Source: Phycisphaerales bacterium
GTDB lineage: Bacteria; Planctomycetota; Phycisphaerae; Phycisphaerales; UBA1924
Reading direction: 5' to 3'
NCBI GenBank assembly: GCA_029213305.1
Contig: JARGPA010000018.1
Coordinates: 1-64,000, forward strand
Length of the DNA stretch: 64,000 nucleotides
Shown here: piece by piece, positions 9,083 to 25,604 of the stretch
Numbering within the stretch: position 1 is the first letter of the stretch
How the letters are laid out: the number at the start of each line of letters is the position of its first letter
Notes under the pieces: generated by a model
What the model saw: only the letters and a program-made list of their open reading frames with translations
Database searches by the model: none
What the model was told of the DNA's origin: nothing
Program-made: the position numbers and the translations under genes

Positions 9083-9114
9083 AATCCCTCAGTTTTTACT
9101 GAGGGATTTTTAAT
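9083..9114. terminator. Bidirectional intrinsic terminator between mscL and the threonine aldolase gene
   Basis: AATCCCTCAG (9083-9092) pairs perfectly with CTGAGGGATT (9099-9108) around a six-base loop and runs into ATTTTTA on the plus strand. On the minus strand the stem is also followed by T-rich sequence. It separates the convergent genes. Confidence 0.85.
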
Positions 9115-9121
9115 GATCCAC

Positions 9122-10204
9122 TTAGAGTGTGATCTCCTTGATACGGCGAACGGTTTCATGAATCATCGCATCATCAATGTCGAGATGGGTCACAAATCGG
9201 ATAGTTCCCTTGCTCTCAGCGTAACACAAGACTCCGATTGACTCGAGTTGTTCTTGCCATTCATATGCATCTCCAACAGTAGAGATCGCCTTTGTGGAGA
9301 GTCTGGCGTAAACAAGGTTCGTTTCTATGCTTGCAGGATCAAAGTCAAAGAGTTCAATACTCGCAAGACTATTTGCAAGTTCCTTCGCTCGTAGATGATC
9401 TTCTGCTAAACGATCGAAATGATGATCAAGAGCAAACATTCCCGCCGCGGCGAGAACACCTGCTTGTCTCATGCCGCCGCCGAGCATTTTTCGTTTCATC
9501 CGAGCACGGTCAATTGTGTCTTGATCTCCGACGAGGATTGAACCGACAGGACATCCGAGTCCTTTACTTAAACATGCAGATATTGTGTCAGTTTCAGAAG
9601 CAATATCTTTAAGATCAACCCCAGATGCAATTGAAGCATTCCAGATTCGAGCTCCGTCAGTATGAACTCTGAGTCCGTTTGCACGAGCAGCTTTGCATGT
9701 GTCACGGAGTAAGTCCATCGGCCAGACGATCCCCCCACCGCGGTTGTGCGTATTTTCGATCGTGAACAGTTTGGTAGGTGGGAAGTGAACATCCGCCATA
9801 CGAAGTGCGCGATTGATACCATCTGGAGTTGTCATTCCTAGACGAGTTGTTTCATCCTCTTTGACAAATCGAATACTACATCCTGCGATCGCGGCGTATC
9901 CGCCAGTCTCGTAGTAATACACATGATTCTCGGGGTGCGTGAGTATTTCATCTCCTGCGACAGTTTGAGCGAGCACTGCAAGCAAGTTTGCCATGGTCCC
10001 AGAAGGAACAAACAATGAAGCTTCTTTGCCGAACATAGATGCGGTTCGTGATTCTAGTTCATTCACCGAAGGGTCGGCCCCCATCACATCGTCACCAACC
10101 TTTGCGTTTGCGATCGCTTCTCGCATTGCTTCAGTCGGTCTGGTGACAGTATCGGATCGCAGGTCGATAGGAGTATTCAAGATATGTTCCTTCCAAGTCG
10201 TCAT
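9122..10204 (-). CDS. ltaE: Low-specificity L-threonine aldolase
   Basis: The 360-residue PLP enzyme splits L-threonine (and allo-threonine) into glycine and acetaldehyde. It opens with IDLRSDTVTRPTEAMREAIA and VGDDVMGADPSVNELE, has the glycine-rich FVPSGTMANLLA, and the PLP-lysine segment SACLSKGLGCPVGSILVG. All are signatures of fold-type I threonine aldolases, and the length is normal. It starts 68 bases after the NRPS stop on the same strand, so read-through from the polysaccharide/NRPS operon is possible, although its role is metabolic. Glycine supply to the NRPS is conceivable but speculative. Confidence 0.92.
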   Translation of the reverse strand: MTTWKEHILNTPIDLRSDTVTRPTEAMREAIANAKVGDDVMGADPSVNELESRTASMFGKEASLFVPSGTMANLLAVLAQTVAGDEILTHPENHVYYYETGGYAAIAGCSIRFVKEDETTRLGMTTPDGINRALRMADVHFPPTKLFTIENTHNRGGGIVWPMDLLRDTCKAARANGLRVHTDGARIWNASIASGVDLKDIASETDTISACLSKGLGCPVGSILVGDQDTIDRARMKRKMLGGGMRQAGVLAAAGMFALDHHFDRLAEDHLRAKELANSLASIELFDFDPASIETNLVYARLSTKAISTVGDAYEWQEQLESIGVLCYAESKGTIRFVTHLDIDDAMIHETVRRIKEITL

Positions 10205-10272: not shown

Positions 10273-13200
10273 TTATGTGTATTCTTGGTGAATCCATTGA
10301 TTCACAATATCTGCAAGCTCGATCACTGCTTGATCTTTGAATAACCCGAGATGAGTTGCATGGATTGAACTGAGGGTGATATTTTTGGGATGAATCGCGG
10401 CAGTCCACCCATTAAACCCATCATCCTTATGGAACTTAAACCACTCGGGCTGAATCGCACGCAACAAACATACCCGGCCTCGATAAGTATCAGTAGGAGT
10501 ATATGAACTGAGCATCCGACGGTTCGCGCGTGCTAGTTTTTTAAACTCAGTGAGTTCTTTGTTCTCTGCTTCGGGTTGAGGAGCAATTGGTTTTTTGTTA
10601 CTTGAAACTCTCTGACGAATGTATTCGAGTCTTCCTGTATCGCTTCCTCGTAGGAGTTGCCCAAGATGTGCAGCAGCTAAACCAGCTTTGTTCTTTCTAG
10701 GCAACCCCGCGGGCAAGTGTGCGTCGAGAAGAATCAAATGCCCAGGAGTGAACCCCTTCGATTGGAGTTGTATCCCAACTTCAACTGACAAAGCACCCCC
10801 AAAACTGTATCCAATCATATCTGGAGCTTGCAGTGTGTTTGTTAGATCCATTTGGTCTATGACCCAACTCGCAAGTTGTTTTAGATCTTCTCCGATTACA
10901 TGAATCTGATTCAACGCGGGGAGTTGCAGCCCAACAAAAGAACGATCTCCAATCAAGAGATCAACCATGGGCTTGAATCCCATCGGTTGCCCACCGATTC
11001 CTGGAAAGAGAATCACTGATGATTCATCACTCGTCTCTGTTAATGAAACGAATGTATCGCACCCACTTGTGTTTGAATAAGTCGACACAGCATGTGCAAG
11101 CAATGAAGGAGTTGAAGCTCTGTAGATTGTTGAAATCGGGAGATGAGTTCCAAGCATTTCTCTCATCAATGAGAACAAGCGAATTGCTTTGAGAGAGTTC
11201 CCCCCTAGCTGAAAGAAACTCTCATTCCCGTCAATTCCCTGCACATCTAAGATACGTTCGAAACAATCAATGACGGTATCCAAGTGACTTGATTCTCCTT
11301 GATCTATGCGCTGAGGGTCAGAGCGAAATGGCAACTTCCGCATTCGTTCAAGCTCATGTCGATTGACTTTCCCGCCTCCAACACGAGGTATATTCGATAC
11401 TCTTGACCAATAAAGCGGGATCATATATCCAGGAAGAAGGCTACTCAGTCCGTTGCGAATCTCTGATTCTGAAACAACCGAATCTTTGCCGACAACGATA
11501 TAGCAATGAAGCTCATGATCTCCATCAGTCATTCGCGAAGCAACGATAGAAGCATCTTGAACCCCTATAAGACTTCGGATGATGCTTTGAACTTCCTCTA
11601 GCTCGACCCGACATCCATGCACTTGCACTTGTTGATCAATTCGCCCTCTATGGATCAATGTACCGTCTTCAAGGACCATTGCACGGTCACCTGTCCGGAA
11701 CCTTCTCCGATTAGTATCTACAACAGGCATTCCGATTTGATCAACTGATTGGGTTGTACAATTCCAATATCCAAGCGCTACACGATCTGATTCGATTTCG
11801 ATCTCACCTGCGAGTTCTGTGGGATTCCCATTTGAATCGACTAATCGAATGTTTGTTCCATTAACAGGAAAACCGATTGGGATCCATCTTGTATATTGTC
11901 TCAGATCTCGAGGATGAACTCTAAGTTGGAGAGCAAGGGACGATTCAGTGAGTCCTAGTCCATTGATGAATAACTCGCAGTTCGGGAAATGATCCTGAAG
12001 CTCTTCACAATCATCTGCGATGACTTGTTCGCCTCCAAGTACCACACATCGGATGTGATCGAGAGTTGTTGAATCATCTAATGATCTTGTCAGCCATCTA
12101 AATACTGATGGAGCTGTGTGAAAGATATCAACTTTAAAGGTATCAACAAACTTGACAAGCTCATCATGATCGGCGTGTTGGATATCGAAGAAACAGAGTG
12201 ATGCACCTGTGAACCAGGCTGAGAACATATCCATAATCGCAGCATCAAAGGCAGGCGAAGAGAGTTGCAAGATATGGTTGGTTGAATTCAACTCAATAGA
12301 ATTCGCGAATGTAGTCATATGCGAAACAACCGCTGCGTGGGATTGAACAACTCCTTTGGGTTGCCCTGTTGACCCTGAAGTATACAAGATATACGCGGGC
12401 GCTTCTGGGTTGATGTGTAAAGGAGTTAACTCTGATTTTTCCATCGAGTTGGTGTTATGATCAATAATGTAAATCAGAGAGTGATCTACAACTTCATCGA
12501 TCCGTGATCTCATTGATTGATCAACTAGTACTTGTGTAGGGTTCGAACTTTCCACAACTTGTTGGACTCGGCGTATTGGCCAGCTGGTTTCAACAGGTAC
12601 ATAGATTGCTCCAATCCGCAATGTCGCTAGGATCGCAATCGCAAGATCGATGTTGTTCTCAATAACGAGAACCACTCGATCACCTGATTCTACATTTCTG
12701 GATTGCAAAGCTCTTGCAATATTGGTGGACTTATCCCACAACTCAACATAACTCAATCGCTCTGATTGTAAAACAACCGCATCATGCTCTGGATATTGCT
12801 TCACAGATTCCCAAACAACATCATGAATACAGCGAGAACAAGCTTGTTGGTCTATCGACGTATCAACTCTGAGAACGTGAGATGATGTCGGTTCATCAGG
12901 ATTCAATATAGGAATGGATGAAATCGAATGATCAAGATATTGCCATGAAGATTTGATTAGTTGGATGAACTGCCCAAGGTATCGATCCATAGATTCTTGT
13001 GAAAACAAACTCTCACGATAGTTGAACACAACTTCCAGTGTGCTTGAGCTATCAAAGACATAGCAAGTTAAGTCAAATTTCGCGGTTCTGTTGTCAATCT
13101 CAGTCTCGTTAAATCGTAGCAAATCATCGTTCTTACCTGAACGGATATCAATACCAATATGATTGAAGAACACTTCAAACAATGGATTTCGGCCGTTCTC

Positions 13201-16065
13201 AGATCGGCCATGAACAGCGTCAACGATATGCTGGAATGGAACATCTCGATGATCGAATGCATTCAGTGCATTTCGGGATGCTTTTGCGATGACATCACTC
13301 AAAGAATCATCGCAAGAAATATGCGTCCGGATCGCAGCGGTTTCCATAAAGAATCCGATTAGCCCTTCAGTTTCTGTCCATTCTCGATTTGCAATAGGTG
13401 TACCAACAGTCACATCCTCTTCGTTGGTGAGTCGATACAACCAGGTCTGAAACAGCCCAAGTAAATAGGCGTACGGTGTAACATTGAGATGACGAGTTGC
13501 ATCTCGAACTTGAGCGGTCGTTCCCGAATCAAGTTGGATACGAATCTTTCGGCCAACTGATGAAGGGTTCGGACCTCTCACAAAATCAGTTGGGAGTTCG
13601 ATTGAACCAACATCACGGAGTTCTTCTTCCCAAAACTCTAAATCGGATTTGTATTGCGAAGTGTCAGGCAAGCTTCTTTGCCAGTTTGAAAAATCAGTGT
13701 ACTGTACATCCAAGTCTGGCAATATAGGATCTCGACCTTGTACGAATGCGGAGTATGCCTCATTCAATTCTCGATGCAGAACTTCGCAAGACCAAGCGTC
13801 AGAGATGATGTGATGCATCGAAATTAGAACTGAGCTTTGATCGATATGATTAAACACATGGCACCGAACCAGCGGCGATTCTTCGAGATTGAATTTGAGA
13901 ACAGAATCTCTTTCGATCTGAGACTCAATCTCAGAGTCTGACATATGGTTTGATTCTGTCCAATTAACTAATGGCAATATGCTGTCGTCAATACATTGAT
14001 ATGGGTGTCCATCTTCGATCTTAATCTTGGTTCTTAACACACCATGTCGTTGCACTACATGATTCCATGCATTCTCAAATGAGACTTGATCTAATGATCC
14101 TGTATGCTCAAGACGAATGCTGATCAGATAGCTTGGATCATCTGGATGAAGTTGATCGAGCATCCATAAGCGCTGTTGGTTAAACGAGAGCGGGCTTCGT
14201 TCTAAACCAAGCGCTGAGTGGGTTAAACCAAGCTTGTTTAAATCAGTTTCTCTTGATTGTTGATCGATCCAATCTGCGATTCCTGCGATCGTGCCAATAC
14301 GATATATTTGAGAGATTGGAAGACTCACACCTAAATGATCTCGAACACGCGAAGTCAAAACCACTGCCCGTAAACTATGACCTCCGAGTTTCAGAAAATT
14401 ATCTTGCTTGTTGATTCCTTGAACTCCAAGGAGAGTTTCAATCGTTTCAATCAACCATTGTTCCGTTGCTGTCTGAGCGAGCTTACTTGAATCATTCTCA
14501 ACTGAGCGTGGTTCATCCTTGTCAATCTTCAAATGATCAATCCAACTCTCAGCGATAACCTTACGATCAATTTTTCCATTAGGATTGAGCGGAATGTGAT
14601 CAACTATCCGGATTGATCCCGGGATCATGTATTGAGGTAAATGCGATTGAAGATAATCGTTTAGAACTTCAGTCGATTGAACTGATGAATCCATTACAAT
14701 ATCCAAATGAATTGACTTTGTTCCTTCTAAATGGATTACCACCGCTGCTGAATTTCGAACACCATCTACTTCATTCGATCTTGACTCAATCTCACCGAGT
14801 TCTATCCGGTATCCATGAATTTTTATTTGATCATCAAGTCGACTATGGAATACAAAATTCCCTAACGCATCTTGGTGTACTAGATCTCCTGTTTTGTAGA
14901 TTCTCTTCGACTCGCCTGATGAGGATTTCAAGTTTACAAACTGCGAGGATGTAAGCTCATGTTGATTTAGATATCCTCGCGAGATTCCGATCCCTGATAG
15001 ACACAACTCACCTATTTCGCCTTCGGATTGCTCTTTATCCTGATCATCGAGTACAAACGCTTCGACTCTGTTTAACGGCTTCCCAATTGGTAAGTACTTT
15101 TGCGTCGAAGAAATTTCTTCAGGTATGTCAAAGGTCGTCGCGAGCATAGTTGCTTCTGTCGGTCCGTAGGCATTAATAAATCGAATCGAAGGGAATTCTT
15201 GTTGAGCTCTTGCGATGATTGCTGGGTTTACTTGTTCTCCACCAACTGCGACCACTGACATGTTGCGAAAGATTGATGGGTTTGCTTCAAACAGGGACGC
15301 GAAGAATCCGAACGCCATGCATGTTGATTGGACCTGCTCACGATGACACAGCATTTCTAGAGTTGCAGGGTCTGGGTCGCCTTCTGGAACGACAACTAGC
15401 TTTGCACCGTGTAGTAACGGCGTAAAGATTTCAAGCGTTGAAACATCAAATGACAATGGCGCTGCATAAAGATAATGAAATTCTGAAGAGAATGGTAGAT
15501 AATTTTGTTCACATACAAGACGAACTACCCCGCAATGTTCGATCATCACTCCCTTCGGTTTCCCCGTCGATCCTGAAGTGTAGAGGATGTACGCGAGCTG
15601 ATTGGGAGTAATATCCTTTGAGGGATTCGTGTCACAACACTCTTTGCATGAATCAACGCGGAAACGTGTTTGAGAATCAGTCCAAAGCTGATTCACATAT
15701 CCATCTTCATAAACAACGAATCTGCATGCAACATCATCCTTCATTTCTTGTAGACGAGAAATTGGCTGATTGTTCACGAAAGGAACATATGCCCCACCTG
15801 CTTTTAGGATTCCAAGAATAGCTGCAACTTGCTCAAATGATTTTGAAATTGAAACCGCAACCGGTTCTTCGGGTTCAATCCCCTCGAGAATCAAACGATG
15901 CGCGACATTGTTTGCTGACGCATTCAACTCCGTAAATGTAAAACATCTTGAAACTTCTGCAATCGCGATCGAATCTGGGTGTAGTGCAACAATTGATTCG
16001 AATCGATCTACGATTGACCAAGTCTCCACGCCGCGTTCATCATATTGGTTCTGGGTTTGATCCAT
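10273..16065 (-). CDS. Two-module nonribosomal peptide synthetase (A-T-C-A-T-TE)
   Basis: The 1930-residue protein has six domains. Adenylation domain A1 (about 20-520) contains YILYTSGSTGKPKGV and NAYGPTE. Carrier T1 has its phosphopantetheine serine at S564 (LGGHSL). The condensation domain (about 620-1070) has HHIISDAW at 751-758, matching HHxxxDxW. A2 (about 1090-1580) contains YILYTSGSTGQPKGV. Carrier T2 has S1624 (LGGNSL). The thioesterase (about 1690-1930) has GYSFGG with S1754 and a late His in ATHLG. It lacks a starter condensation domain, so it looks like a complete two-residue assembly line releasing a dipeptide or cyclising it. Specificity-pocket residues read by eye give DVL-x-AGAML for A1 and DAM-x-VGGLA for A2, which match no code I know. 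It lies 44 bases after a UDP-sugar dehydrogenase gene. Product unknown. Confidence 0.93.
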   Translation of the reverse strand: MDQTQNQYDERGVETWSIVDRFESIVALHPDSIAIAEVSRCFTFTELNASANNVAHRLILEGIEPEEPVAVSISKSFEQVAAILGILKAGGAYVPFVNNQPISRLQEMKDDVACRFVVYEDGYVNQLWTDSQTRFRVDSCKECCDTNPSKDITPNQLAYILYTSGSTGKPKGVMIEHCGVVRLVCEQNYLPFSSEFHYLYAAPLSFDVSTLEIFTPLLHGAKLVVVPEGDPDPATLEMLCHREQVQSTCMAFGFFASLFEANPSIFRNMSVVAVGGEQVNPAIIARAQQEFPSIRFINAYGPTEATMLATTFDIPEEISSTQKYLPIGKPLNRVEAFVLDDQDKEQSEGEIGELCLSGIGISRGYLNQHELTSSQFVNLKSSSGESKRIYKTGDLVHQDALGNFVFHSRLDDQIKIHGYRIELGEIESRSNEVDGVRNSAAVVIHLEGTKSIHLDIVMDSSVQSTEVLNDYLQSHLPQYMIPGSIRIVDHIPLNPNGKIDRKVIAESWIDHLKIDKDEPRSVENDSSKLAQTATEQWLIETIETLLGVQGINKQDNFLKLGGHSLRAVVLTSRVRDHLGVSLPISQIYRIGTIAGIADWIDQQSRETDLNKLGLTHSALGLERSPLSFNQQRLWMLDQLHPDDPSYLISIRLEHTGSLDQVSFENAWNHVVQRHGVLRTKIKIEDGHPYQCIDDSILPLVNWTESNHMSDSEIESQIERDSVLKFNLEESPLVRCHVFNHIDQSSVLISMHHIISDAWSCEVLHRELNEAYSAFVQGRDPILPDLDVQYTDFSNWQRSLPDTSQYKSDLEFWEEELRDVGSIELPTDFVRGPNPSSVGRKIRIQLDSGTTAQVRDATRHLNVTPYAYLLGLFQTWLYRLTNEEDVTVGTPIANREWTETEGLIGFFMETAAIRTHISCDDSLSDVIAKASRNALNAFDHRDVPFQHIVDAVHGRSENGRNPLFEVFFNHIGIDIRSGKNDDLLRFNETEIDNRTAKFDLTCYVFDSSSTLEVVFNYRESLFSQESMDRYLGQFIQLIKSSWQYLDHSISSIPILNPDEPTSSHVLRVDTSIDQQACSRCIHDVVWESVKQYPEHDAVVLQSERLSYVELWDKSTNIARALQSRNVESGDRVVLVIENNIDLAIAILATLRIGAIYVPVETSWPIRRVQQVVESSNPTQVLVDQSMRSRIDEVVDHSLIYIIDHNTNSMEKSELTPLHINPEAPAYILYTSGSTGQPKGVVQSHAAVVSHMTTFANSIELNSTNHILQLSSPAFDAAIMDMFSAWFTGASLCFFDIQHADHDELVKFVDTFKVDIFHTAPSVFRWLTRSLDDSTTLDHIRCVVLGGEQVIADDCEELQDHFPNCELFINGLGLTESSLALQLRVHPRDLRQYTRWIPIGFPVNGTNIRLVDSNGNPTELAGEIEIESDRVALGYWNCTTQSVDQIGMPVVDTNRRRFRTGDRAMVLEDGTLIHRGRIDQQVQVHGCRVELEEVQSIIRSLIGVQDASIVASRMTDGDHELHCYIVVGKDSVVSESEIRNGLSSLLPGYMIPLYWSRVSNIPRVGGGKVNRHELERMRKLPFRSDPQRIDQGESSHLDTVIDCFERILDVQGIDGNESFFQLGGNSLKAIRLFSLMREMLGTHLPISTIYRASTPSLLAHAVSTYSNTSGCDTFVSLTETSDESSVILFPGIGGQPMGFKPMVDLLIGDRSFVGLQLPALNQIHVIGEDLKQLASWVIDQMDLTNTLQAPDMIGYSFGGALSVEVGIQLQSKGFTPGHLILLDAHLPAGLPRKNKAGLAAAHLGQLLRGSDTGRLEYIRQRVSSNKKPIAPQPEAENKELTEFKKLARANRRMLSSYTPTDTYRGRVCLLRAIQPEWFKFHKDDGFNGWTAAIHPKNITLSSIHATHLGLFKDQAVIELADIVNQWIHQEYT

Positions 16066-16109
16066 CAGAACAACTAATCCTTAATCCGGACTCTGCACCT
16101 TATACGGCG

Positions 16110-17480
16110 CTACGCCTTAACTACCCTTGCGCTGATCTCCGAAACGCTGTTCATCGCATTACGTGTATCGACGATTAACCCAGCGAACTTGCCGACGATT
16201 GACCAATCGATTGCTTGATGATCTGTCACGATAATCACACAATCGGACTTTGAGAGTTGCGATTGAGTGAGATCAACCGATTCCATCTCAAACGAGTAGT
16301 TTCTCATCTTTGGGAAACTCGAAACATGCGGATCGTGATATGACACAATCGCGCCCCTTTGTGCAAGTTGAGCAATGATCTCTGCAGCGGGAGTTTCTCT
16401 AGTATCATCTACATTGGGTTTATACGCGAGACCTAATACAAGAATATCAGAGCCCTTGATAGATTTACAATCTTCATTGAGTGCCTCTGCAGTCTTCTCA
16501 ACCACATATTCAGGCATACTCCGGTTTATTTCCCCTGCGAGCTCAATAAATCGAGTCACACATCCATGCTCACGAGCTTTCCATGTAAGGTAGTATGGAT
16601 CAATTGGTATACAGTGCCCACCCAAACCTGGTCCAGGATAAAATGGTGTAAACCCGAATGGTTTCGTTGATGCTGCACGGATCACTTCCCAGATATCAAT
16701 ACCCATCGTATCGAACACGCCTTTGAGTTCATTCACTAAAGCAATGTTGACAGATCGAAATACATTTTCCAGTATTTTCGCAGCCTCCGCAATTTCTGCA
16801 GATGCTACAGGGATGACTTCACTGACTCCATGAGCATAGAGCAAACACGCAAGTTCGGTCGAAACTTGATCTATACCACCCACAAGCTTTGGTATTGATG
16901 TCGTAGAGTGTGACTTGCGTCCAGGGTCTTCGCGTTCAGGTGAAAAAGCAACAAAGATATCTTCACCTGGAACGAATGATTGTTTTTGTTGATTAATCGC
17001 GGCATTGAGAATCGCTGGAATGAAATCACCTGTTGTTGTCCCAGGATAGGTGGTGGATTCGAGGATAATCAACTGTCCTTTTCGCAAGCATGCACCGATA
17101 TCTTGGGCAGTTTTAATGACATATTTCAAGTCCGGTTCGAGATGTTCTCCTACTGGAGTTGGGACACAAACAATGATCACATCTGGATCTGAAAGTTTTG
17201 AAAAATCTGAAGTGACTTCAAAACGATTTGAATCGTTGAGTCGTTGAGTCATCTCATTTCCAAGATGCTTGAGATAATTTGTACCCGATTGGATTTCTGT
17301 GATCTTGGACGAATCAATATCGAAACCGATTACTTTCAAACCCCCTGTGTGAATCGCATCGGCCAAGGGAAGACCGACATATCCTAACCCGATGATACCT
17401 ACAACGGCTTCTTTGGATTCGATCTTCTCTTTCAATCGTTGAGCTTGAGTACTCATTTCATGTGTCATATCGCTACCCAA
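16110..17480 (-). CDS. UDP-sugar 6-dehydrogenase (UDP-N-acetylhexosamine type)
   Basis: The 456-residue NAD-dependent enzyme oxidises C6 of a UDP-sugar to the uronic acid for polysaccharide synthesis. The Rossmann start VGIIGLGYVGLPLADAI, the FSPEREDPG segment, the catalytic-Cys motif GLGGHCIPIDPYYLTWKA and the C-terminal VLGLAYKPNVDDTRETPA place it nearest the WbpA/WbpO group that acts on UDP-GlcNAc or UDP-GalNAc, rather than UDP-glucose dehydrogenase. Substrate assignment is inference from motif style. It follows the Alg13-type glycosyltransferase gene by 11 bases. Confidence 0.9.
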   Translation of the reverse strand: MGSDMTHEMSTQAQRLKEKIESKEAVVGIIGLGYVGLPLADAIHTGGLKVIGFDIDSSKITEIQSGTNYLKHLGNEMTQRLNDSNRFEVTSDFSKLSDPDVIIVCVPTPVGEHLEPDLKYVIKTAQDIGACLRKGQLIILESTTYPGTTTGDFIPAILNAAINQQKQSFVPGEDIFVAFSPEREDPGRKSHSTTSIPKLVGGIDQVSTELACLLYAHGVSEVIPVASAEIAEAAKILENVFRSVNIALVNELKGVFDTMGIDIWEVIRAASTKPFGFTPFYPGPGLGGHCIPIDPYYLTWKAREHGCVTRFIELAGEINRSMPEYVVEKTAEALNEDCKSIKGSDILVLGLAYKPNVDDTRETPAAEIIAQLAQRGAIVSYHDPHVSSFPKMRNYSFEMESVDLTQSQLSKSDCVIIVTDHQAIDWSIVGKFAGLIVDTRNAMNSVSEISARVVKA

Positions 17481-17491: not shown

Positions 17492-17974
17492 TCACAGTTC
17501 ATGATGAATGAAGTCTGAGATCGCTTGTATAAGCTCCGGCGAAGCTCCTGATGAGATTGTATCAGAAGCTGAGAGTTGAGAGAGCTTTTCGAGCATCGCT
17601 GGAAGCTCTGTTTCATCCATTGCTACCGCTACCCTTCCCATTTCGAGGAATCTTTGCGCTGTTGCTACTTGATGATCGTTCCGTGTTTCTAAGAGCGCTG
17701 CGCGTCGCGGCATAACTAAAATTGGAGTTTGCTGTTCTAGAGCTGTGAGGATTGTCCCAGTCCCTGCGTGTGCTACAACTGCATCCGCTTGAGCGATTCG
17801 TTCTTGGAACTCATTTGGATCAATAGTATGCGCCCATTGAATATGCTCCGGGCGATACTTTGTAGAACCAATCTGCGCAAACACATCGGATCGCTGATTC
17901 AATGCCGCCCAATCATCAACCGCTTTGACCATACGATCAAAGGGCATCTGATGTCCGACAGTAACAAAGATCAT
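17492..17974 (-). CDS. Alg13/PssE-type glycosyltransferase catalytic subunit
   Basis: About 160 residues resemble the C-terminal half of GT28 enzymes: MIFVTVGHQMPFDRMVKAVD at the start, then VVAHAGTGTILTALEQQTPILVMPR, the donor nucleotide-sugar site, and NDHQVATAQRFLEMG. Such proteins work with an Alg14-like membrane partner. The start at 17974 overlaps the stop of the Alg14-like gene by 4 bases (ATGA); the longer frame has no motif support. The pair probably adds a sugar (often glucuronate or GlcNAc in relatives) to a lipid-linked intermediate. Confidence 0.88.
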   Translation of the reverse strand: MIFVTVGHQMPFDRMVKAVDDWAALNQRSDVFAQIGSTKYRPEHIQWAHTIDPNEFQERIAQADAVVAHAGTGTILTALEQQTPILVMPRRAALLETRNDHQVATAQRFLEMGRVAVAMDETELPAMLEKLSQLSASDTISSGASPELIQAISDFIHHEL

Positions 17975-18450
17975 ATCACTGCTCCTTTGCACTTGGGTCC
18001 GGATTCTGTCTCAAGGTGAGGCCATTGAGTGAGCCAAAGTGACGCGTGGGGTCCGATCTTTTGTCCCGACTTTGAGAGCTCTTCCACATTCGCGATCGAG
18101 TCAACCCAGATCGTCCTTGCTCCAAAGAACTTCCCAAGTCGAAGTGCGAAGAAACCGGGGAGTGCTCCAGTTGAGATAATCACATCTGGTCGCTCTCGAA
18201 CAAGAATCCATAGCAACTGTAATACTGTCTGGATCCATCTGATTTTATTCCAACGAGTCACATCAAAGACAGTGTAATACCGAGCGTTGTTAAATCGATC
18301 AATCTGATATCGATAATCATCTTGAACAGTCACAAATGCAAGTGAACAATCTTCAACTGCTTGAGTCAGGCGCATGAGCTCGACCCAGTGCCCACCACCG
18401 GATGCAACAAGCATGACTTTCTTCTGCTTTACATTCTTTGAATCGCTCAT
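17971..18450 (-). CDS. Alg14/PssD-type glycosyltransferase membrane subunit
   Basis: The 159-residue protein carries KVMLVASGGGHWVELMRL at its start, a hydrophobic segment (about residues 75-90, IQTVLQLLWILV), PDVIISTGALPGFFALRLGK and ARTIWVDSIANVEELS, the pattern of Alg14/PssD/CpsF proteins that recruit the Alg13-like subunit to the membrane. It overlaps both neighbours by 4 bases, which suggests translational coupling with the partner subunit directly downstream. Confidence 0.88.
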   Translation of the reverse strand: MSDSKNVKQKKVMLVASGGGHWVELMRLTQAVEDCSLAFVTVQDDYRYQIDRFNNARYYTVFDVTRWNKIRWIQTVLQLLWILVRERPDVIISTGALPGFFALRLGKFFGARTIWVDSIANVEELSKSGQKIGPHASLWLTQWPHLETESGPKCKGAVI

Positions 18451-19394
18451 TTCTGAATCCGATCACGAATGAGTCGATTGTACTTATCAAGAGTCCGGCC
18501 TTTTCCCTTTAGCAGGCACTCGAATTCATATTTGCGAAAATGGTGGAGATATTCAGGATCATCGTATCGTGGCGCTCTTGTAATCATCGCACCAAGGTAT
18601 CCACACAAAATACCCAGACCGCCAAATATGATTGGGTATTCTTTCGATCGGTAGATACTCACTGCGAGAACATAAGCGAGTGACGAACCCATGTAATACT
18701 TGCCGCGCCCCCATCGCTTGCGCCCAGTCCAGATACTTTTTTGGCTGCTCCCTTGTGGGCGATAATGCTTGAGCACAATGTCAGGTTCGTCAATTGAACT
18801 CGCAATCCAGTTCTTCATCCGACATCGGTGTCCATCAATCCCATCCCAACTGGCGCGTGATACAAACCCCCCAATATCAAGATAGCATTCTTTGCGATAG
18901 AACTTCGCAGGACCGATCGCGTTCTCATCACCCATCCGTTCGGAAACCCACTTATCTCCGCTTGTATTGATGTATGTCTTGCCTGAGATGTTTCCAAGCA
19001 GCGGATCCTCTTGGAGACGATTCATCATGCTCTCGAAATATCCTTCGGGGATACCCAAGTCCGCGTCCAGTTTGCAGAGAAAATCGTAATCATCCAAGTT
19101 AATCGATTCGAGTCCGTCATTGAAAGCTTCAACGACTCCTGCCCCTACCGCACGCTGTCCACGATCACTCCGTTGTATGACTTTGATGAATGGATATTTT
19201 TTACATGCAGCTTCTAAAATTTCTGGTGTACGATCAGTCGACCCATCATCGACTACAACCCAGCAGGCGGGGAGTTCGGTTTGCTCAGCAATGGAATCAA
19301 TTGTAATTTGCAGATAATCTTCTTCGTTACGACAAGGCGTAATCAGCACATATCGACGCTGGTTCATCGATGTCTCTGCTTCTGGATTCATCAT
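18447..19394 (-). CDS. GT2-family glycosyltransferase
   Basis: The 315-residue protein has a GT-A fold: YVLITPCRNEEDYLQITIDS, VVVDDGSTDRTPEIL, and DXD-like CKLDADLGIPEGYFESM near residue 105. A putative acceptor-site acidic motif and a C-terminal hydrophobic segment (about 240-265) follow. It probably extends the repeat unit of the exopolysaccharide from a nucleotide sugar at the cytoplasmic membrane. It overlaps both neighbouring genes by 4 bases. Confidence 0.9.
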   Translation of the reverse strand: MMNPEAETSMNQRRYVLITPCRNEEDYLQITIDSIAEQTELPACWVVVDDGSTDRTPEILEAACKKYPFIKVIQRSDRGQRAVGAGVVEAFNDGLESINLDDYDFLCKLDADLGIPEGYFESMMNRLQEDPLLGNISGKTYINTSGDKWVSERMGDENAIGPAKFYRKECYLDIGGFVSRASWDGIDGHRCRMKNWIASSIDEPDIVLKHYRPQGSSQKSIWTGRKRWGRGKYYMGSSLAYVLAVSIYRSKEYPIIFGGLGILCGYLGAMITRAPRYDDPEYLHHFRKYEFECLLKGKGRTLDKYNRLIRDRIQK

Positions 19395-20629
19395 TTCAAC
19401 CCCCTCGTTGAGAATGTATCAACGATCCGATTCGCATTGAGCAATAGATCAAACTCATTTTCAATTCTTAATCGAGCTGCTCTCCCAAGCTCATCCACAC
19501 GATCGCGATTCTCTGCGAGTTCCATCAATGCAGACTCCAACGATTCTTGATCTCCAGGAGGAATCATGATTCCTGAGATTCCGTCTTCGATGAGTTCACG
19601 AATGGTTTCAAGATCGCCAGATATCACACAACGCCCTCTTGCCATCGCTTCCATCAACACGACTGGAATACCATCACGATCTCCTGTCGACGCTACTCGA
19701 CATGGAAGCGCAAACACATCCGCTTTAGTCATAAGTTCCATTATCTGATCATTGTCAGTATCACCCAACATCACCACTTCTGCAGTCACAGGAAGCGATC
19801 GAACAATTCGTTCTAGGTTTTCAGCTTCTGGTCCGCCACCTGCGATTGTTAAACGCATCGAGTGCGTACCCTTCTCTGCTATTTCACCGATTGCTTTGAT
19901 CAACACATCAAAGCCCTTCTTCTCCACAAGTCGACCAACGCTCAGAACTTCAAGACGATCTCCTCGAGGCGCGGGAGTACTTTGGAATAGACGAGTATCT
20001 ACGCCGCAACGAATAACGGGATACTCTGTATCAGGACGATCGCAAAGATCTTGGTAAAACTTCCGATGCCAATAACTGATGCAGTTCACGAAACTAGCTC
20101 GCGAGAGCTTTTCCTTTAGCAACGTTCGGTTTGGAAACAAATCATTCGCATGCCCTGTGAAACTAAATGGAATCCCAAGTTGTTTCGCGCTGTACATTGC
20201 AATCGTCGTAGGAACATGCGCCATATGTGCATGGATATGAGTGACACCTTTACCTCGCAGTCGATGAGCAAATGCCAATCCAGCAATCCCTTGCCAAACG
20301 ACTTTGGGTCTTCGACTCAGTGAAATATCTGATGAAAACAACACATCACATATGCACATCAACAGAGTTCCAATTGACTTCAATGGATGAGTTAACATTT
20401 CCTTTACGGAATCAACAAGAAGTTTACCAGCGCCCAACGAGTAAATCTGGGTTGTGTTCTTTGCCATCTCATCGAGAACATCATTGTCGAGCCCAGCCAT
20501 GGATTCATGAACAGATGCGGTTTGAACATCGACTCCAAGCGAACGAAGCGCCAAGATTTCACGATATACAAAGGTTTCTGATCGCTTTGGAACGGTCCCA
20601 GACATGTACACAACTAAACGCTCAGGCAT
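19391..20629 (-). CDS. GT4-family glycosyltransferase
   Basis: The 412-residue protein has a GT-B fold. The N-terminal half includes VTHIHAHMAHVPTTIAMY and PFSFTGHANDLF. The C-terminal half contains the donor site VLSVGRLVEKKGFDVLIKAI, TIAGGGPEAENLE, and GIPVVLMEAMARGRCVIS with the EX7E-type region. It resembles the WcaL/AmsK group of exopolysaccharide glycosyltransferases. It overlaps the upstream GT2 gene by 8 bases and the downstream gene by 4. Confidence 0.9.
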   Translation of the reverse strand: MPERLVVYMSGTVPKRSETFVYREILALRSLGVDVQTASVHESMAGLDNDVLDEMAKNTTQIYSLGAGKLLVDSVKEMLTHPLKSIGTLLMCICDVLFSSDISLSRRPKVVWQGIAGLAFAHRLRGKGVTHIHAHMAHVPTTIAMYSAKQLGIPFSFTGHANDLFPNRTLLKEKLSRASFVNCISYWHRKFYQDLCDRPDTEYPVIRCGVDTRLFQSTPAPRGDRLEVLSVGRLVEKKGFDVLIKAIGEIAEKGTHSMRLTIAGGGPEAENLERIVRSLPVTAEVVMLGDTDNDQIMELMTKADVFALPCRVASTGDRDGIPVVLMEAMARGRCVISGDLETIRELIEDGISGIMIPPGDQESLESALMELAENRDRVDELGRAARLRIENEFDLLLNANRIVDTFSTRGLK

Positions 20630-21665
20630 GATCCCCTCCTACTGCGAGTCCATCGGCGTCCTTGTATTCGATGAGTGTTGCTTGCTTCTTCAAGAGTTTT
20701 CGATACCAATACAAGAGAACGCCGTTCGCTTGAGGATACTTAGCAATGAGTACAAACAAGGCCATGAGATTCGCATCCTTTGAGATACGCCCTCTCCCAA
20801 TTTCACCCTTGCGAATGCGCCAAAACTGGAGTACCAGTAACATCCCATAGATCAAGACTGACAGCCCTAAAGTCCACCAGGCAAAGCAGATTGCAAGTAG
20901 AGGCATTATGAAACCCCAAACCATTGCTGAACGAGTTTGCTTTACATTGTGACGCTCGGGGGGAGCACCGTGCATATCTGCGCCCTGTGCGTAGGCGTGC
21001 CCTGCTCGTTTAGCTCGTAGCCAAAATTGCCCGAATCGAGTCATGGCCGCATCGTGGAATGTCATCTCATGATCAATCCGATGAACAGTGTATCCTAATC
21101 CCCTGATACGAACGCACAACTCTGGTTCCTCTCCTGCGATTACAGTTGGGTTGTAACCGTTCACTTCATTGAAAGCTTTGAGCAAGAACAGTGCATCTCC
21201 ACCGCACGAGCGAGCTTTGCCAATTGGAGTGTCCCATTCGAGATCACAGAGACGGTTATACTTCGTATCATCCGGGAATCGTTCTCTTCGACGGCCGCAC
21301 ACTACCGCAGCTTTATCTTCAGAACGAATAAAATCAAATGCTAGTTGCATCCACCCTTCGCGAAACTCACAATCTCCATCGAGCACATGAACATATTCGA
21401 TCGCATCATTTTGCATGAGCAGCTGTTTTATGCCTTCATTTCTTGCTCGAGCAGCAGTAAATGGAACACTCGTATCAAGGTTTACTACTTCAACTCCAAT
21501 CGAGCTGGCAAACTCTATCGAATCATCTGTTGATCCTGAATCCACATATACAACATGATCTACTTGCTCTTTGGCAGATCTGAGACATTTTTTCAGACGA
21601 TCTCCCTCGTTGCGACCAATCGCAACAACTCCGATTAGATTGCGCATGCTTACTTGCTCAGACAT
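20622..21665 (-). CDS. GT2-family glycosyltransferase with C-terminal membrane segments
   Basis: About 347 residues. The GT-A signature is LIGVVAIGRNEGDRLKKCL, VVYVDSGSTDDSIEFA and the DXD-like HVLDGDCEFREGWM. Two or three hydrophobic helices follow at about 230-275. The start at 21665 follows GAAAGAGGCGTGCA and overlaps the sulfotransferase stop by 8 bases. It likely adds one sugar to the lipid-linked repeat unit on the inner face of the membrane. Confidence 0.88.
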   Translation of the reverse strand: MSEQVSMRNLIGVVAIGRNEGDRLKKCLRSAKEQVDHVVYVDSGSTDDSIEFASSIGVEVVNLDTSVPFTAARARNEGIKQLLMQNDAIEYVHVLDGDCEFREGWMQLAFDFIRSEDKAAVVCGRRRERFPDDTKYNRLCDLEWDTPIGKARSCGGDALFLLKAFNEVNGYNPTVIAGEEPELCVRIRGLGYTVHRIDHEMTFHDAAMTRFGQFWLRAKRAGHAYAQGADMHGAPPERHNVKQTRSAMVWGFIMPLLAICFAWWTLGLSVLIYGMLLVLQFWRIRKGEIGRGRISKDANLMALFVLIAKYPQANGVLLYWYRKLLKKQATLIEYKDADGLAVGGDHA

Positions 21666-22569
21666 TGCACGCCTCTTTCCAAGATGGAGATACACCTGAT
21701 GTCACTTGATCCTTGAACGACGCGCAAGTTAGTTCTCTATCCAACAAATCACCTAGCTTTGCTAGATCTGGATTTAGTTCTTCACCTATGAAATGAATCG
21801 ACTCATTTGAAAGCTGCGGCCGTTCACTCATTGTCCATCGGGAACGAACCCTTTGTCGCATTGATTCTGGCAACAAAGACCTGCGAGCTATTTGTACTGC
21901 ACGAATATCTAGTATTGCATTTAGAATTGGGTTTCTTCGTTGTCGTTGTGATGAAACATTCTTTGCTTCATCTTCTACCCATTGAGCAACCCCAGAATAT
22001 CCGATGTGCTGTGCAACACGCTCAAGTTCCGATTGCGGATCACCCATTAATCGTTCGAAGAAAACAGGTAGAACAGTGCCTTGTCCAAAGAGTTCAAAGT
22101 ACGGTTCGAGTTGCATCGCATATCGAGAATAATCAAGCAAAATAGGATACTTCTTGATTGCTTCATCAATCGGACAATCTTTGTCAATGACATGCATTGA
22201 CCACTCGTGAATATATTGTGAAACGATCCGATCAACCGGATCTCTCATCACATAAATCAACTTCGCATCAGGCACAAACTCATTCAGTCTGCGAGCGGCT
22301 TTGGGATATGTCGGAAGTTTCGTGTAATGGGTTGACGACTCACCCTTGAGATCCCCCGATGGCATTGATGCAAACAACGACTCATACCAAGGCATTCCCA
22401 TTGCCCATTGATCTGGATCAGAGAAGAAGTTCGGCTCCTTAGGCTCTGACATTGAGATTCCATCTAGTAGAGCAAGTTGATCGTGCAACGAACTTGTCGC
22501 ACATTTCATCGCTCCAATGATGATAAAATCAGGACGAACAACCAAACTTGTGTGAGATTGATTATCCAT
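21658..22569 (-). CDS. Sulfotransferase (PAPS-dependent, heparan-sulfotransferase-like)
   Basis: About 303 residues. The 5'-phosphosulfate-binding loop is FIIIGAMKCATSSLHDQL (about residues 15-30), the catalytic/3'-phosphate region is LIYVMRDPVDRIVSQYIHEW, and PKEPNFFSD lies between, as in glycan sulfotransferases. It should transfer sulfate from PAPS to a sugar hydroxyl or amine. The start at 22569 follows GGAGGTGCGC and overlaps the upstream GT2 gene by 8 bases. Its place among glycosyltransferases points to sulfation of the exopolysaccharide. PAPS synthesis genes are not in the window. Confidence 0.88.
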   Translation of the reverse strand: MDNQSHTSLVVRPDFIIIGAMKCATSSLHDQLALLDGISMSEPKEPNFFSDPDQWAMGMPWYESLFASMPSGDLKGESSTHYTKLPTYPKAARRLNEFVPDAKLIYVMRDPVDRIVSQYIHEWSMHVIDKDCPIDEAIKKYPILLDYSRYAMQLEPYFELFGQGTVLPVFFERLMGDPQSELERVAQHIGYSGVAQWVEDEAKNVSSQRQRRNPILNAILDIRAVQIARRSLLPESMRQRVRSRWTMSERPQLSNESIHFIGEELNPDLAKLGDLLDRELTCASFKDQVTSGVSPSWKEACNV

Positions 22570-23539
22570 GCGCACCTCCGATTGGGACTTGATGTACCGG
22601 AGATTTCCATATATCAAACTGCTCTCGTGCAACTGCTCCTGATTTCCCACGGACGAGTGAAAGTATCCACCCCATAGTCCAGAGAATGTTTCCTAAGATA
22701 AATCCGACAAGTCCATAACTACTTCGGAGGTAATGGGATCGAGCGGCGTAGTAATACGCAGGTCGGCGTTTGCGTTGAATCGTTTGCTCTTTAACAGGAG
22801 ATGATCCTCCACGCAGATGTACCACATGCGCATCAGGTTGATATGCAATCTTGAATCCTGCTTTGGTTGCTTTTCGGCACATCGCCATATCTTCAAAATA
22901 CATGAAGTACTTCTCATCAAGCAATCCAACCGAATCAAACACTTTCTTCCGGATTGCGATACACGCAAAACTCACCCAATCGAGTCCAACCTCAAACTCA
23001 CTCAACTCTCGTGCGACAACATGCTTTGGGAAAAGGCGCCCAAGCAAACCCAACTTTGCAGCGTACATCATTTCTGATATGGGAGTTCGATATCTAAATG
23101 TTGATATCTGTGGTTTCCCATCAGGCCATTCCAGTTGTGGACCAAGCATATCTACATCGCTGTGCTCACTCATCGTAGTTAACAAAGTTTTAATCGCTCC
23201 CTCACGCACAATAGTGTCGGAGTTAAGCAAAAGATAGACATCCGCAAGAATCGCATTAATTCCAACATTGTTCCCTGCTGCGAAACCAGCATTCACAGGA
23301 GATCGTACTACAGAAACCCATTCACTCCATGAATGAGTATCGATTGCGTTTTCAATCTTGTCTGCAGAATCATCCCCGGAATAATTATCGACAACAACCA
23401 CTCGATGGAATCGTTCATCGATTTGCCCATGAATAGATTGGAGACAATCGATAACAAGATCTGGGGTCTTGTAGTTCAACACGACGATCGCAAGTTTGAA
23501 CGAACCTGGTATGGTATATTGTTTGGGCAGAGCACTCAT
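22562..23539 (-). CDS. GT2-family glycosyltransferase (rhamnosyltransferase-like)
   Basis: About 325 residues: KLAIVVLNYKTPDLVIDCLQ, VVVDNYSGDDSADKIE, NAGFAAGNNVGINAI, LLLNSDTIVREGAI (DXD equivalent NSDT) and YFMYFEDMAMCRKATKAGFK. This is the layout of the WbbL-like rhamnosyltransferase group of GT2, which fits the rmlC/rmlD genes nearby. The acceptor sugar is unknown. A C-terminal hydrophobic helix (about 275-300) may anchor it. The start at 23539 overlaps the upstream GT4 stop by 4 bases. Confidence 0.88.
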   Translation of the reverse strand: MSALPKQYTIPGSFKLAIVVLNYKTPDLVIDCLQSIHGQIDERFHRVVVVDNYSGDDSADKIENAIDTHSWSEWVSVVRSPVNAGFAAGNNVGINAILADVYLLLNSDTIVREGAIKTLLTTMSEHSDVDMLGPQLEWPDGKPQISTFRYRTPISEMMYAAKLGLLGRLFPKHVVARELSEFEVGLDWVSFACIAIRKKVFDSVGLLDEKYFMYFEDMAMCRKATKAGFKIAYQPDAHVVHLRGGSSPVKEQTIQRKRRPAYYYAARSHYLRSSYGLVGFILGNILWTMGWILSLVRGKSGAVAREQFDIWKSPVHQVPIGGAHG

Positions 23540-24663
23540 TTCGACCACTCCGGATCTGACTCATCGAGCCAACGATAGAGAGCTTCTTCGAGTTTTTCAG
23601 CAGATCGATCCCAACTGAAATCGAGTGCCATCTCATAACTCTTTGCACTCATTTCTTCCCATGCATCATTCTCAAGATTCAGTATCCTTGAAATCCGATC
23701 AGCCATTGCTTCGTCGTCGCCGACATCGACAAGGTATCCGTTTTCTCCTTCGCGAATGAAATCCTCGGGCCCACCGCATCGTGTAGATACGAGAGGGCAA
23801 TGTGACGCCATCGATTCAATCCCAGGCATTCCAAATCCTTCGGCCGAAGAAGGGATCACCCAACAATCAGCTTGCTGGTAGAGTTGAGGGATCATGCTTT
23901 GATCCGGGCTTTCATAAAACTCAACGCAATCAGGAACATTCATTTCCTTTGGTAACTGACGGGTGCCGAACCCAATTACACGGAGATCAGGGTACTGTTT
24001 AACTAGTCTATGGATCGCTCTGATACCTGTCGGAGTATCTTTGAAAGACGAGAGCCCCATTAACATACCGACTGTAGGACGATGAGCTTTTCTGCGTGGC
24101 TGAGAATCAAACTGATCCCAATCAACTCCATTTGGGACACGAATTACTTCTTCATGCCCTAGATCATTCAAGATTCTTTTTAACCACGTCGAGATCACTA
24201 CACGAGGACCACAGAGTCGGTATGCATCATCTACTTCTTGCTCATCGCCTCCATGTGTTTCGTAATGGCGGACATAGTGAACTTTGAGCCCCTTTGATGA
24301 AGACCAGGTGTGAACTTGTCTCCAGACATCCCACCAACTCGCGAATGTGACATCCGCATCTGGGATGAGATCAGGATTCAGTTTTCGCGTGGGCATTTGA
24401 TTGAGTGTAATCTCGCCGTGTTGTAGGTGATGTGGATAATATTTATCCCCCACCCCTCGCTTGATTCGTTTAATCATGCGACGGACACGCCAAGGTTTCG
24501 GCCATCCCCAAGACGGGGGCAAAAACGAAGTTGTCACTGTATGCCCACGGCGCTGCATCGCTTCTGCAATCAATCGATTGGATTTGATACCACCTGAAAG
24601 GGTTGGACGAGCTTCTACCCAGTTCAATCGAAGTGTTCTCTTTTGAGTAACTGGCTCACTCAT
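23536..24663 (-). CDS. GT4-family glycosyltransferase
   Basis: The 375-residue GT-B protein begins LRLNWVEARPTLSGGIKSNR, has VIRVPNGVDWDQF at the domain junction, then VGMLMGLSSFKDTPTGIRAI, CWVIPSSAEGFGMPGIESMA (EX7E region) and CPLVSTRCGGPEDFI. It resembles GT4 enzymes of cell-surface polysaccharide loci. It overlaps the sulfotransferase gene upstream and the GT2 gene downstream by 4 bases each. Confidence 0.9.
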   Translation of the reverse strand: MSEPVTQKRTLRLNWVEARPTLSGGIKSNRLIAEAMQRRGHTVTTSFLPPSWGWPKPWRVRRMIKRIKRGVGDKYYPHHLQHGEITLNQMPTRKLNPDLIPDADVTFASWWDVWRQVHTWSSSKGLKVHYVRHYETHGGDEQEVDDAYRLCGPRVVISTWLKRILNDLGHEEVIRVPNGVDWDQFDSQPRRKAHRPTVGMLMGLSSFKDTPTGIRAIHRLVKQYPDLRVIGFGTRQLPKEMNVPDCVEFYESPDQSMIPQLYQQADCWVIPSSAEGFGMPGIESMASHCPLVSTRCGGPEDFIREGENGYLVDVGDDEAMADRISRILNLENDAWEEMSAKSYEMALDFSWDRSAEKLEEALYRWLDESDPEWSK

Positions 24664-25604
24664 AAGGGTGAACCTCGCGACTCTTGTACATCATTCGTCC
24701 AAGAATGATCACTGACATATCCGAGTGCGATCAACAGCTCTCCCGCGATATCAATAAATGCACCTCGTTCACTTTGTTTGAGATCAGTCTTCCATCTCCC
24801 GATGCTCTTAGGTGTGATCGGACGAGCAGCGCCCGCATTGTTCATGTTCTGCCCGCTGCGTTGGGTGTTAACTGACGACTCTGGATCAGGATTAAGCATT
24901 CCGTGCTCGAAATCTTCACCAATAAACTCGCACACCTTTGCCATCTCTGAGTTCGGGTCAACTACAAAGTCTTCGTATCGCACTTCGAGACAACGAGGAT
25001 GATTCTGAAATGCGAGCCCCATCGAGGTATCGTTGAGCCATCTTGTTGCACTTCTTTCAACTGGGTTGTTACTCTCGACTGGGATGATCTTCCCATTCAC
25101 AACTCGTTCGCGTGGATGTTTACGCAATGAACAAACAACATCTCGTCCATCACGGATCACATGAATGAAACGTGCATTCGGATACCAAGTCAACAATCGA
25201 TCAACTGCTCGAACATTGTTGGGGGTTTTTTCTACCCATCGTTTCTTTCCTTCATTGTGAAGAAACTCGTTCGCGAAACGATCAGCAAACTCAATCAAGT
25301 TCGATGATTGATCAACCATTGATTCTAAATGATTCCGATTAATATCCCAGGGAGCTGCAATGTTGTCTACATTGAACGGTAATCCATACAATGAAGTTTC
25401 GGGACCACACGCACAACGAGAATGTCGATTGAGTAACTCTTTGAAGAGCGTTGTGCCTGACCGACCACACCCGCCTATGAACACCGCGTCCATTTCAGAA
25501 CGGGCACTTGGGTTGTACCAGCCTTGATCTTTGAGAGACTGGTCCTGTTTATCACGAGCTCTTTTTGAAATCCGTTTCCTTAGATGATCTGGACTGAGTT
25601 TCAT
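24660..25604 (-). CDS. Sulfotransferase family protein (second in operon)
   Basis: The 314-residue protein has the PAPS-binding loop VFIGGCGRSGTTLFKELL (about 41-58), KRWVEKTPNNVRAVDRLL, and the 3'-phosphate motif FIHVIRDGRDVVCSLRKHPR, a clear sulfotransferase_1/3 family pattern different from that of the other sulfotransferase in this operon. Two unlike enzymes suggest sulfation at two positions. It overlaps genes on both sides by 4 bases. Confidence 0.9.
   Translation of the reverse strand: MKLSPDHLRKRISKRARDKQDQSLKDQGWYNPSARSEMDAVFIGGCGRSGTTLFKELLNRHSRCACGPETSLYGLPFNVDNIAAPWDINRNHLESMVDQSSNLIEFADRFANEFLHNEGKKRWVEKTPNNVRAVDRLLTWYPNARFIHVIRDGRDVVCSLRKHPRERVVNGKIIPVESNNPVERSATRWLNDTSMGLAFQNHPRCLEVRYEDFVVDPNSEMAKVCEFIGEDFEHGMLNPDPESSVNTQRSGQNMNNAGAARPITPKSIGRWKTDLKQSERGAFIDIAGELLIALGYVSDHSWTNDVQESRGSPL

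What the first reader, a model, noticed from the sequence alone, without database searches (positions are those of the whole stretch)
10273..17480. A dipeptide NRPS embedded at the end of a sulfated-polysaccharide operon
The last gene of a tightly packed glycosyltransferase/sulfotransferase operon encodes a complete A-T-C-A-T-TE synthetase, directly after a UDP-sugar dehydrogenase (gap of 44 bases). An Sfp-type phosphopantetheinyl transferase is encoded about 28 kb away beside the exosortase operon. NRPSs usually sit in dedicated metabolite clusters with transporters and regulators, none of which are seen here. One hypothesis is that a dipeptide is made for attachment to, or release with, the uronic-acid polysaccharide. 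Whether the product is a free dipeptide, a diketopiperazine or a glycan-linked amide cannot be told.
Basis: partly seen in the sequence, partly recalled or inferred. Interest (0 to 1): 0.8.

Follow-up and report, generated by a model that had tools for sequence, protein, structure and literature searches.

The report
Peptide synthetase wired into polysaccharide locus
A planctomycete bacterium carries a two-step peptide-making enzyme inside its sulfated-polysaccharide gene cluster, and comparison with related species suggests that the enzyme and its activating partner are kept or lost together while the rest of the cluster stays, so it looks like a genuine optional part of the cluster, with an unknown dipeptide product and role.

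Summary
The window encodes an intact 1930-aa A-T-C-A-T-TE NRPS (10273-16065, minus), 44 nt after a UDP-sugar dehydrogenase (DH) in a glycosyltransferase/sulfotransferase operon. It is not the last gene: a GntG-type aldolase follows, then a terminator-like hairpin. It is probably not a chance neighbour. Of 21 congeneric genomes 13 have the operon marker and 7 of these the NRPS, each time directly after the DH. A copy without the second A domain holds the same place in another genus. The NRPS tree matches the locus tree: vertical descent with about three losses. In the eight NRPS-less copies of the locus the Sfp-type PPTase (28 kb away, exosortase operon) is absent or motif-degraded, while polysaccharide genes remain; no other gene family follows this pattern across the NRPS+ loci. 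Module 2's pocket code is nearly constant (DAMH[VI]GG[LV]xK, 7 of 7); module 1 has three code types. Best reading: an optional NRPS/PPTase pair of the exosortase/EPS locus makes an X-Y dipeptide (X lineage-specific, Y fixed), released by its own TE, probably as a small molecule co-produced with the matrix. Attachment to glycan is not excluded, but no co-segregating ligase was found. The product is unproven.

The parts
10273..16065 (-). NRPS, 1930 aa, A1-T1-C-A2-T2-TE
14506..16008 (-). A1 domain (aa 20-520, limits set by me), pocket code DVLCAGAMLK
   Evidence: code read by alignment to the 1AMU sequence
14251..14478 (-). T1 carrier domain (aa 530-605), Ser564 invariant
12880..14208 (-). Condensation domain (aa 620-1062), His751-His752-Asp756 invariant
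11296..12843 (-). A2 domain (aa 1075-1590), pocket code DAMHVGGLAK, nearly constant in 7 species
11050..11283 (-). T2 carrier domain (aa 1595-1672), Ser1624 invariant
10276..11043 (-). Thioesterase domain (aa 1675-1930), Ser1754/Asp1781/His1905 invariant
16110..17480 (-). UDP-sugar dehydrogenase, directly upstream of the NRPS in 7 of 7 NRPS+ congeners and in G148
9122..10204 (-). GntG-family PLP-dependent (threonine-type) aldolase, last gene of the operon; directly behind the DH in four NRPS-less loci
9083..9108 (-). terminator-like hairpin after the aldolase
17492..27454 (-). upstream part of the operon: glycosyltransferases, two sulfotransferases (21658-22650, 24660-25604), Asn-synthase-like protein (25601-27454)
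43649..44425 (-). Sfp-type phosphopantetheinyl transferase, co-inherited with the NRPS
42545..43477 (-). protein with a weak LbH/hexapeptide match, one flank of the PPTase site
44429..45499 (-). Ser/Gly-rich protein without Pfam match, other flank of the PPTase site
41664..42545 (-). exosortase
   Evidence: PF09721 174 bits; TIGR02602 111.6 bits, cut-off 105.55
37305..41640 (-). bacterial sugar transferase, AAA_31 (Wzc-like) protein, DUF3485 (EpsI-like) protein of the exosortase operon
30768..32483 (-). two PEP-CTERM-like, thioester-domain-like proteins of the same locus

Best explanation
The NRPS and the Sfp-type PPTase form an optional, vertically inherited accessory module of an exosortase/exopolysaccharide superlocus. 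The PPTase arms T1 and T2. A1 loads a lineage-specific, probably neutral or hydrophobic amino acid X. A2 loads one fixed amino acid Y. The C domain joins X to Y and the TE releases the X-Y dipeptide (linear, or as a diketopiperazine). Because the NRPS lies in the operon for the sulfated, uronic-acid polysaccharide, the product should appear with the matrix and most likely acts as a diffusible or matrix-held small molecule, in the way N-acyl amino acids are tied to PEP-CTERM/exosortase loci. Shown by sequence: architecture, intact active-site residues, conserved position, congruent trees, co-loss with the PPTase, near-constant A2 and variable A1 codes. Inferred: co-transcription, dipeptide product, free release, matrix role.
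For: NRPS in 7 of 21 genus genomes, each directly after the DH, gap 0-44 nt by first-start ORFs (my arithmetic). 13 of 21 carry the operon-marker GT at E<=1e-60; NRPS of this type in 0 of the 8 without it. PPTase match in 6 of 21, all NRPS+, in 0 of 14 NRPS- (PF01648 agrees; the seventh NRPS+ genome, G012, is 61% complete), between the same two flanking genes in G000, G002, G010, G011, G018. Both genes at the same places in G148 of another genus; its A1 nests among the genus A1s at 100/100 and its TE and C score nearest to them. Three changes of NRPS state on the 16-locus tree, read as losses; in all three groups the PPTase is absent (G014; G005, G009, G015, G016 by map, G013 by genome search) or motif-degraded (G296, G255). 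NRPS tree in the same order as the 9-protein locus tree. A2 code near-constant, A1 code in three types, A1 tree in conflict. dN 0.29, dS 2.2 for G011/G012. Precedent: PMC7293339, passages.
Against: No exporter or regulator of a small molecule recognised among the 30 window proteins scanned. Only three events; inside the genus two independent pairs, sign test p 0.5. NRPS and PPTase need each other anyway, and in the family 10 of 11 further genomes with a PPTase match also have an NRPS-model match in a different setting, so co-loss alone does not tie them to the polysaccharide. The A-T-C-A-T-TE layout is common in unrelated bacteria at about 30% identity. G014 holds another carrier-protein gene (A-T-TE) in the same gap and G296 beside its DH, so the site accepts insertions. 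No expression, substrate or product data.
Confidence: 0.5

Rival explanations
1. The dipeptide is a covalent substituent of the polysaccharide (amide on a uronic acid or amino sugar, or ester), put on by the NRPS's own TE acting as an acyltransferase or by an enzyme already present in all loci. The variable A1 would then create lineage-specific surface chemotypes.
For: Position right behind the uronic-acid-forming DH, no exporter recognised, A1 diversification with fixed A2, losses leave the backbone machinery in place as expected for a decoration. An Asn-synthase-like protein lies in the window operon.
Against: No ligase or transferase family co-segregates with the NRPS. The Asn-synthase-like protein has a match in only one other mapped locus, G020. 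The TE has an ordinary Ser-Asp-His set, and its weak PDB matches are the surfactin type II thioesterase, NocB and a polyketide synthase.
Confidence: 0.28
2. The NRPS is a self-contained metabolite gene that merely sits in a tolerant gap between DH and aldolase; its product has nothing to do with the matrix.
For: The same region holds an unrelated inverted A-T-TE gene in G014 and G296, and six of the 13 genus genomes with the operon marker do without the NRPS. Stand-alone A-T-C-T-TE NRPSs occur elsewhere in the family.
Against: The position is kept in 8 species of two genera although the full-length orthologues are only 40-44% identical to the window's. The PPTase lies in the other half of the same superlocus, with polysaccharide genes in between, and is lost or decays with it. 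No NRPS of this type was found outside the locus in the genus.
Confidence: 0.17
3. The product is used by another part of the locus, for example as an amine partner of the thioester-domain-like PEP-CTERM proteins, cross-linking them to the matrix.
For: TED-like PEP-CTERM proteins are in the locus; in another genus an NRPS, a PPTase and two TED-like genes lie close together (L118).
Against: TED-like genes are equally present in NRPS- loci (6 and 6 genomes). The window proteins fall below the TED cut-off, and the fold model is poor and had no structural match.
Confidence: 0.05

Closest known systems
Type I dimodular NRPS (A-T-C-A-T-TE)
   Same: Domain order and catalytic residues; best-scoring solved chain is linear gramicidin synthetase LgrA
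   Different: Set in a glycan operon instead of a metabolite cluster; near-constant A2 with varying A1; no substrate or product known
N-acyl amino acid synthases linked to PEP-CTERM/exosortase loci (stieleriacines of Stieleria maiorica; PMC7293339, passages seen)
   Same: Amino-acid-derived small molecule thought to be made from an exosortase/EPS locus in Planctomycetota
   Different: There N-acyl tyrosines; here an NRPS with its own PPTase would make a dipeptide
TIGR03098 ligase_PEP_1 (AMP-forming ligase of exosortase A systems)
   Same: AMP-forming ligase in an exosortase-EPS locus
   Different: The NRPS scores 374 bits, under the cut-off of 592
Stand-alone A-T-C-T-TE NRPSs of the same family (e.g. 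L115, L116, L124)
   Same: Their A domains are the sister group of the locus A1 (96/94)
   Different: Code DALW[LC]GG[TV]FK, no second A domain, no DH or GT of this operon in the stretches read

Membership tests
Functional dimodular NRPS | A-T-C-A-T-TE domains over Pfam cut-offs | tested here: met
Functional dimodular NRPS | A Lys, T Ser, C HHxxxD, TE Ser-Asp-His present and invariant (motifs recalled) | tested here: met
   6 of 6 aligned orthologues (the split G020 copy was left out)
Functional dimodular NRPS | Cognate Sfp-type PPTase with GxDxE and WxxKExxxK (motifs recalled) | tested here: met
   GIDVE and WTQIESVLK; the Lys before Glu is Ile here and varies in this set
Functional dimodular NRPS | Makes a peptide in vitro or in vivo | not testable with these tools
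   -
Dedicated metabolite gene cluster | Own transporter, regulator or tailoring genes beside the NRPS | tested here: not met
   none recognised in the Pfam scan of 30 window proteins between 9122 and 53758; not every ORF was scanned
Exosortase/PEP-CTERM EPS locus | Exosortase, DUF3485, sugar transferase, Wzc-like protein, sorted proteins | tested here: met
   the sorted proteins judged by eye, one homologue with a PEP-CTERM hit below cut-off
Exosortase A (XrtA) subtype | TIGR03109 over cut-off 208 | tested here: not met
   130.2 bits
TIGR03098 exosortase A-associated ligase | over cut-off 592 | tested here: not met
   374.1 bits
N-acyl amino acid synthase of exosortase loci | NAS-type acyltransferase in the locus | tested here: inconclusive
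   no such Pfam hit among the 30 scanned proteins; no NAS model was looked for by itself
Aureusimine synthetase AusA | NF047350 over 2500 bits | tested here: not met
   852.5 bits; the window protein ends in a TE

The most novel reading that the evidence does not exclude
A polysaccharide operon carries its own assembly line for a lineage-variable dipeptide that is put onto the sulfated glycan, with the NRPS thioesterase acting as the glycan acyltransferase; exchange of the first A domain would then change the surface chemotype of each species.
Probability: 0.18. Interest if true: 0.85.

Novelty: new variant of a known kind. Interest (0 to 1): 0.52.

Why it matters
Genome mining usually treats NRPSs as stand-alone clusters. 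Here an NRPS and its PPTase are embedded in, and inherited with, a polysaccharide/exosortase locus, with a first module that changes specificity (apparently by A-domain exchange) and a fixed second module. The losses supply natural pairs for asking whether nonribosomal peptides are part of the bacterial matrix.

Tried and rejected
Rejected: NRPS as a recent arrival by transfer (GC 43.4% vs 46.2% for the upstream operon, tree congruent with the locus). Rejected: NRPS as last gene of the operon (aldolase behind it). Considered: the A-T-TE genes beside the DH in G014 and G296 as relatives of module 2; their A domains have Val where the amino-acid-binding Asp235 is expected, so I take them for a different ligase family.

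Considered: G148 as an ancestral form without A2. Its C domain falls with the genus C domains (100/99, but on a long branch flagged as unsure); A2 of the genus NRPS falls in a 100/100 group with the A domains of a Parabeggiatoa dimodular NRPS and two A-T-TE proteins, and C next to the Parabeggiatoa C with weak support (84/75). Loss of A2 in G148 is the simpler reading, not proven. By model score alone G148 (826 bits) barely exceeds generic NRPSs of the class (up to 786 bits); the trees, not the score, make it the relative.

Led nowhere: substrate naming. The A2 code is nearest to a Glu code that I recall (DAWHFGGVDK, 6 of 10), too weak to use; the family's DALWLGGTFK resembles the Val code that I recall. 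The fold model of the TED-like protein was poor (pLDDT 54.7) and had no match with E <= 0.001; a profile search of PDB sequences gave nothing. The first scan of genome contigs confirmed no relative; the second returned mainly generic NRPSs plus MAG UBA1910. Ten paper searches were run; in their listings I saw no title or abstract start about an NRPS inside an EPS/exosortase locus, but the library lacks most subscription papers. Passages were looked for in PMC7293339, PMC1569441 (none of the terms found) and PMC12078418; no paper was read whole.
Full report
Observation. The 1930-aa ORF at 10273-16065 (-) is a complete A-T-C-A-T-TE NRPS. It lies 44 nt behind a nucleotide-sugar dehydrogenase (DH) towards the downstream end of a glycosyltransferase/sulfotransferase operon. 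The operon goes on for one more gene, a GntG-family aldolase (9122-10204), and the longest hairpin of the scan is behind that (the scan as a whole found no more terminator-like sites than shuffles). The Sfp-type PPTase (43649-44425) lies in the exosortase operon. The own genome has one Condensation-domain match, this gene.

Who it is. 

Conservation. Of 21 genus genomes (own included) 7 have the full NRPS type (G000, G002, G010, G011, G012, G018, and G020 on two contigs). 13 of 21 have the operon's glycosyltransferase at E<=1e-60. In all 7 the NRPS is the next gene after the DH, with 0-44 nt between them by first-start ORFs (my arithmetic; starts not verified). In the six operon-bearing genomes without it, the DH is followed directly by the aldolase in four (G009, G013, G015, G016; gaps 21-75 nt), by an inverted A-T-TE gene and then the aldolase in G014, and by a contig end in G005. 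None of the eight genomes without the operon marker has this NRPS. Behind the NRPS the aldolase follows in G000, G002, G010 and G018; in G011 and G012 a dihydroorotate-dehydrogenase-like gene follows instead, so the aldolase is not tied to the NRPS.

PPTase. With the window PPTase as query, 6 of 21 genomes match, all NRPS+. With PF01648, 19 of 21 have a short AcpS-type hit and the same 6 have a second, longer one (three of these six are under the family cut-off); G012 (61% complete, NRPS+) and G008 (56%) have no hit at all. In five NRPS+ loci the PPTase sits between the same two genes. In the five NRPS- loci that span the place (G005, G009, G014, G015, G016) these two genes are 289-458 nt apart, with at most a mechanical ORF of about 100 aa between them. 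Clustering of locus ORFs (families in at least three genomes) put only NRPS and PPTase in four or more NRPS+ and no NRPS- loci; three three-genome clusters also had no NRPS- member: the Cys/Met-type enzyme at 52481-53758, a sulfotransferase of G011/G012/G020, and an ORF antisense to the exosortase. The PPTase cluster there held only 4 genomes because of low identity, and the loci are not equally long.

Other genera. In the family, 45 of 163 genomes match the glycosyltransferase, 32 of them outside the genus. I read stretches of all 32 (31; G148); several stretches end before the place of interest, and the ORF picking masks genes under longer antisense ORFs. Among the 31 the only NRPS-like hit was the A-T-TE gene of G296. 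G148 has an NRPS of type A-T-C-T-TE directly after the DH and a PPTase at the same place as in the window. Its A domain nests inside the genus A1 clade (100/100). G255 and G296 of the same genus have no match to the NRPS model at 1e-70 (the G255 contig ends soon after its DH); their PPTase copies have lost motif residues (G296: GVGLA in place of GxDxE, and the Glu/Lys pair; G255: the last residue of GxDxE). Elsewhere in the family 11 more genomes match the PPTase, 10 of which also match the NRPS model.

Trees. Nine locus proteins give one fully supported tree (G012 and G013 fill under half of the columns; with the second genus, quick method). The NRPS tree has the same order, so the NRPS descended with the locus; three changes of state are needed, most simply three losses. 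Fisher's test on 16 loci gives p 0.0014 but ignores relatedness; inside the genus only two independent pairs exist. The NRPS changes about two to three and a half times faster than the backbone (my arithmetic on branch lengths), yet under purifying selection (dN 0.29, dS 2.2 for G011/G012; dS saturated in the two other pairs).

Mechanism. Catalytic residues are invariant in the six full-length orthologues. Codes read against PDB 1AMU: A2 is DAMH[VI]GG[LV]xK in 7 of 7; A1 is DVLCAGAMLK (G000, G002), DAIWMGSALK (G010, G018), DLLM[VL]G[GA]VLK (G011, G012; G020 read in part). The A1 tree joins G000 with G002 (99/97) against the order of the whole gene, which points to exchange of A1. So the second residue of the dipeptide should be fixed and the first should vary. 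Which amino acids they are cannot be told here.

Function. The tie to the locus is fairly well supported; the role is not. For a free small molecule: no attaching enzyme co-segregates, the NRPS carries its own TE, and N-acyl amino acids are thought to be made from exosortase/EPS loci (PMC7293339, passages). For a glycan substituent: the place next to the DH, no exporter recognised, and the variable first residue. I put the first at about 0.5 and the second at about 0.28.

Limits. Most genomes are incomplete; the order and class searches sampled 400 and 397 genomes of larger groups; the only full-length matches in the order sample were the seven of the genus. The NRPS start is not verified; no expression or chemistry was available.

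Noticed in passing
window 30768-31484 and 31767-32483 (-): Tandem secreted-looking proteins with a PEP-CTERM-like tail and a weak thioester-domain (TED) match; Cys82 and Gln154..Trp158 invariant in 9 sequences; a homologue in L118 passes the TED cut-off. Possibly exosortase-anchored covalent adhesins.
   Followed up: partly
L031:7259-9904 and L073:3215-5758: An inverted A-T-TE gene sits between DH and aldolase in G014 and beside the DH in G296, both NRPS-less; its A domain lacks the amino-acid-binding Asp.
   Followed up: partly
L108 (G296) and L109 (G255): PPTase copies with lost motif residues where the NRPS is missing: apparent decay of the partner gene.
   Followed up: yes
L118:8311-17328: In another genus (G352) an A-T-C-T NRPS, a PPTase and two TED-like genes lie close together, without this sugar operon in the stretch read.
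   Followed up: no
L115, L116, L124 and others: Stand-alone A-T-C-T-TE NRPSs with a Val-like pocket code in several genera of the family.
   Followed up: partly
L069:3396-4475 (+): A RimK/LysX-like ATP-grasp ligase gene a few kb from the G148 NRPS, on the other strand.
   Followed up: no
window 45749-49695 (-): Two tandem chemoreceptors with Tll0287-like sensor domains beside the exosortase operon; at least one is kept at this place in several relatives.
   Followed up: no
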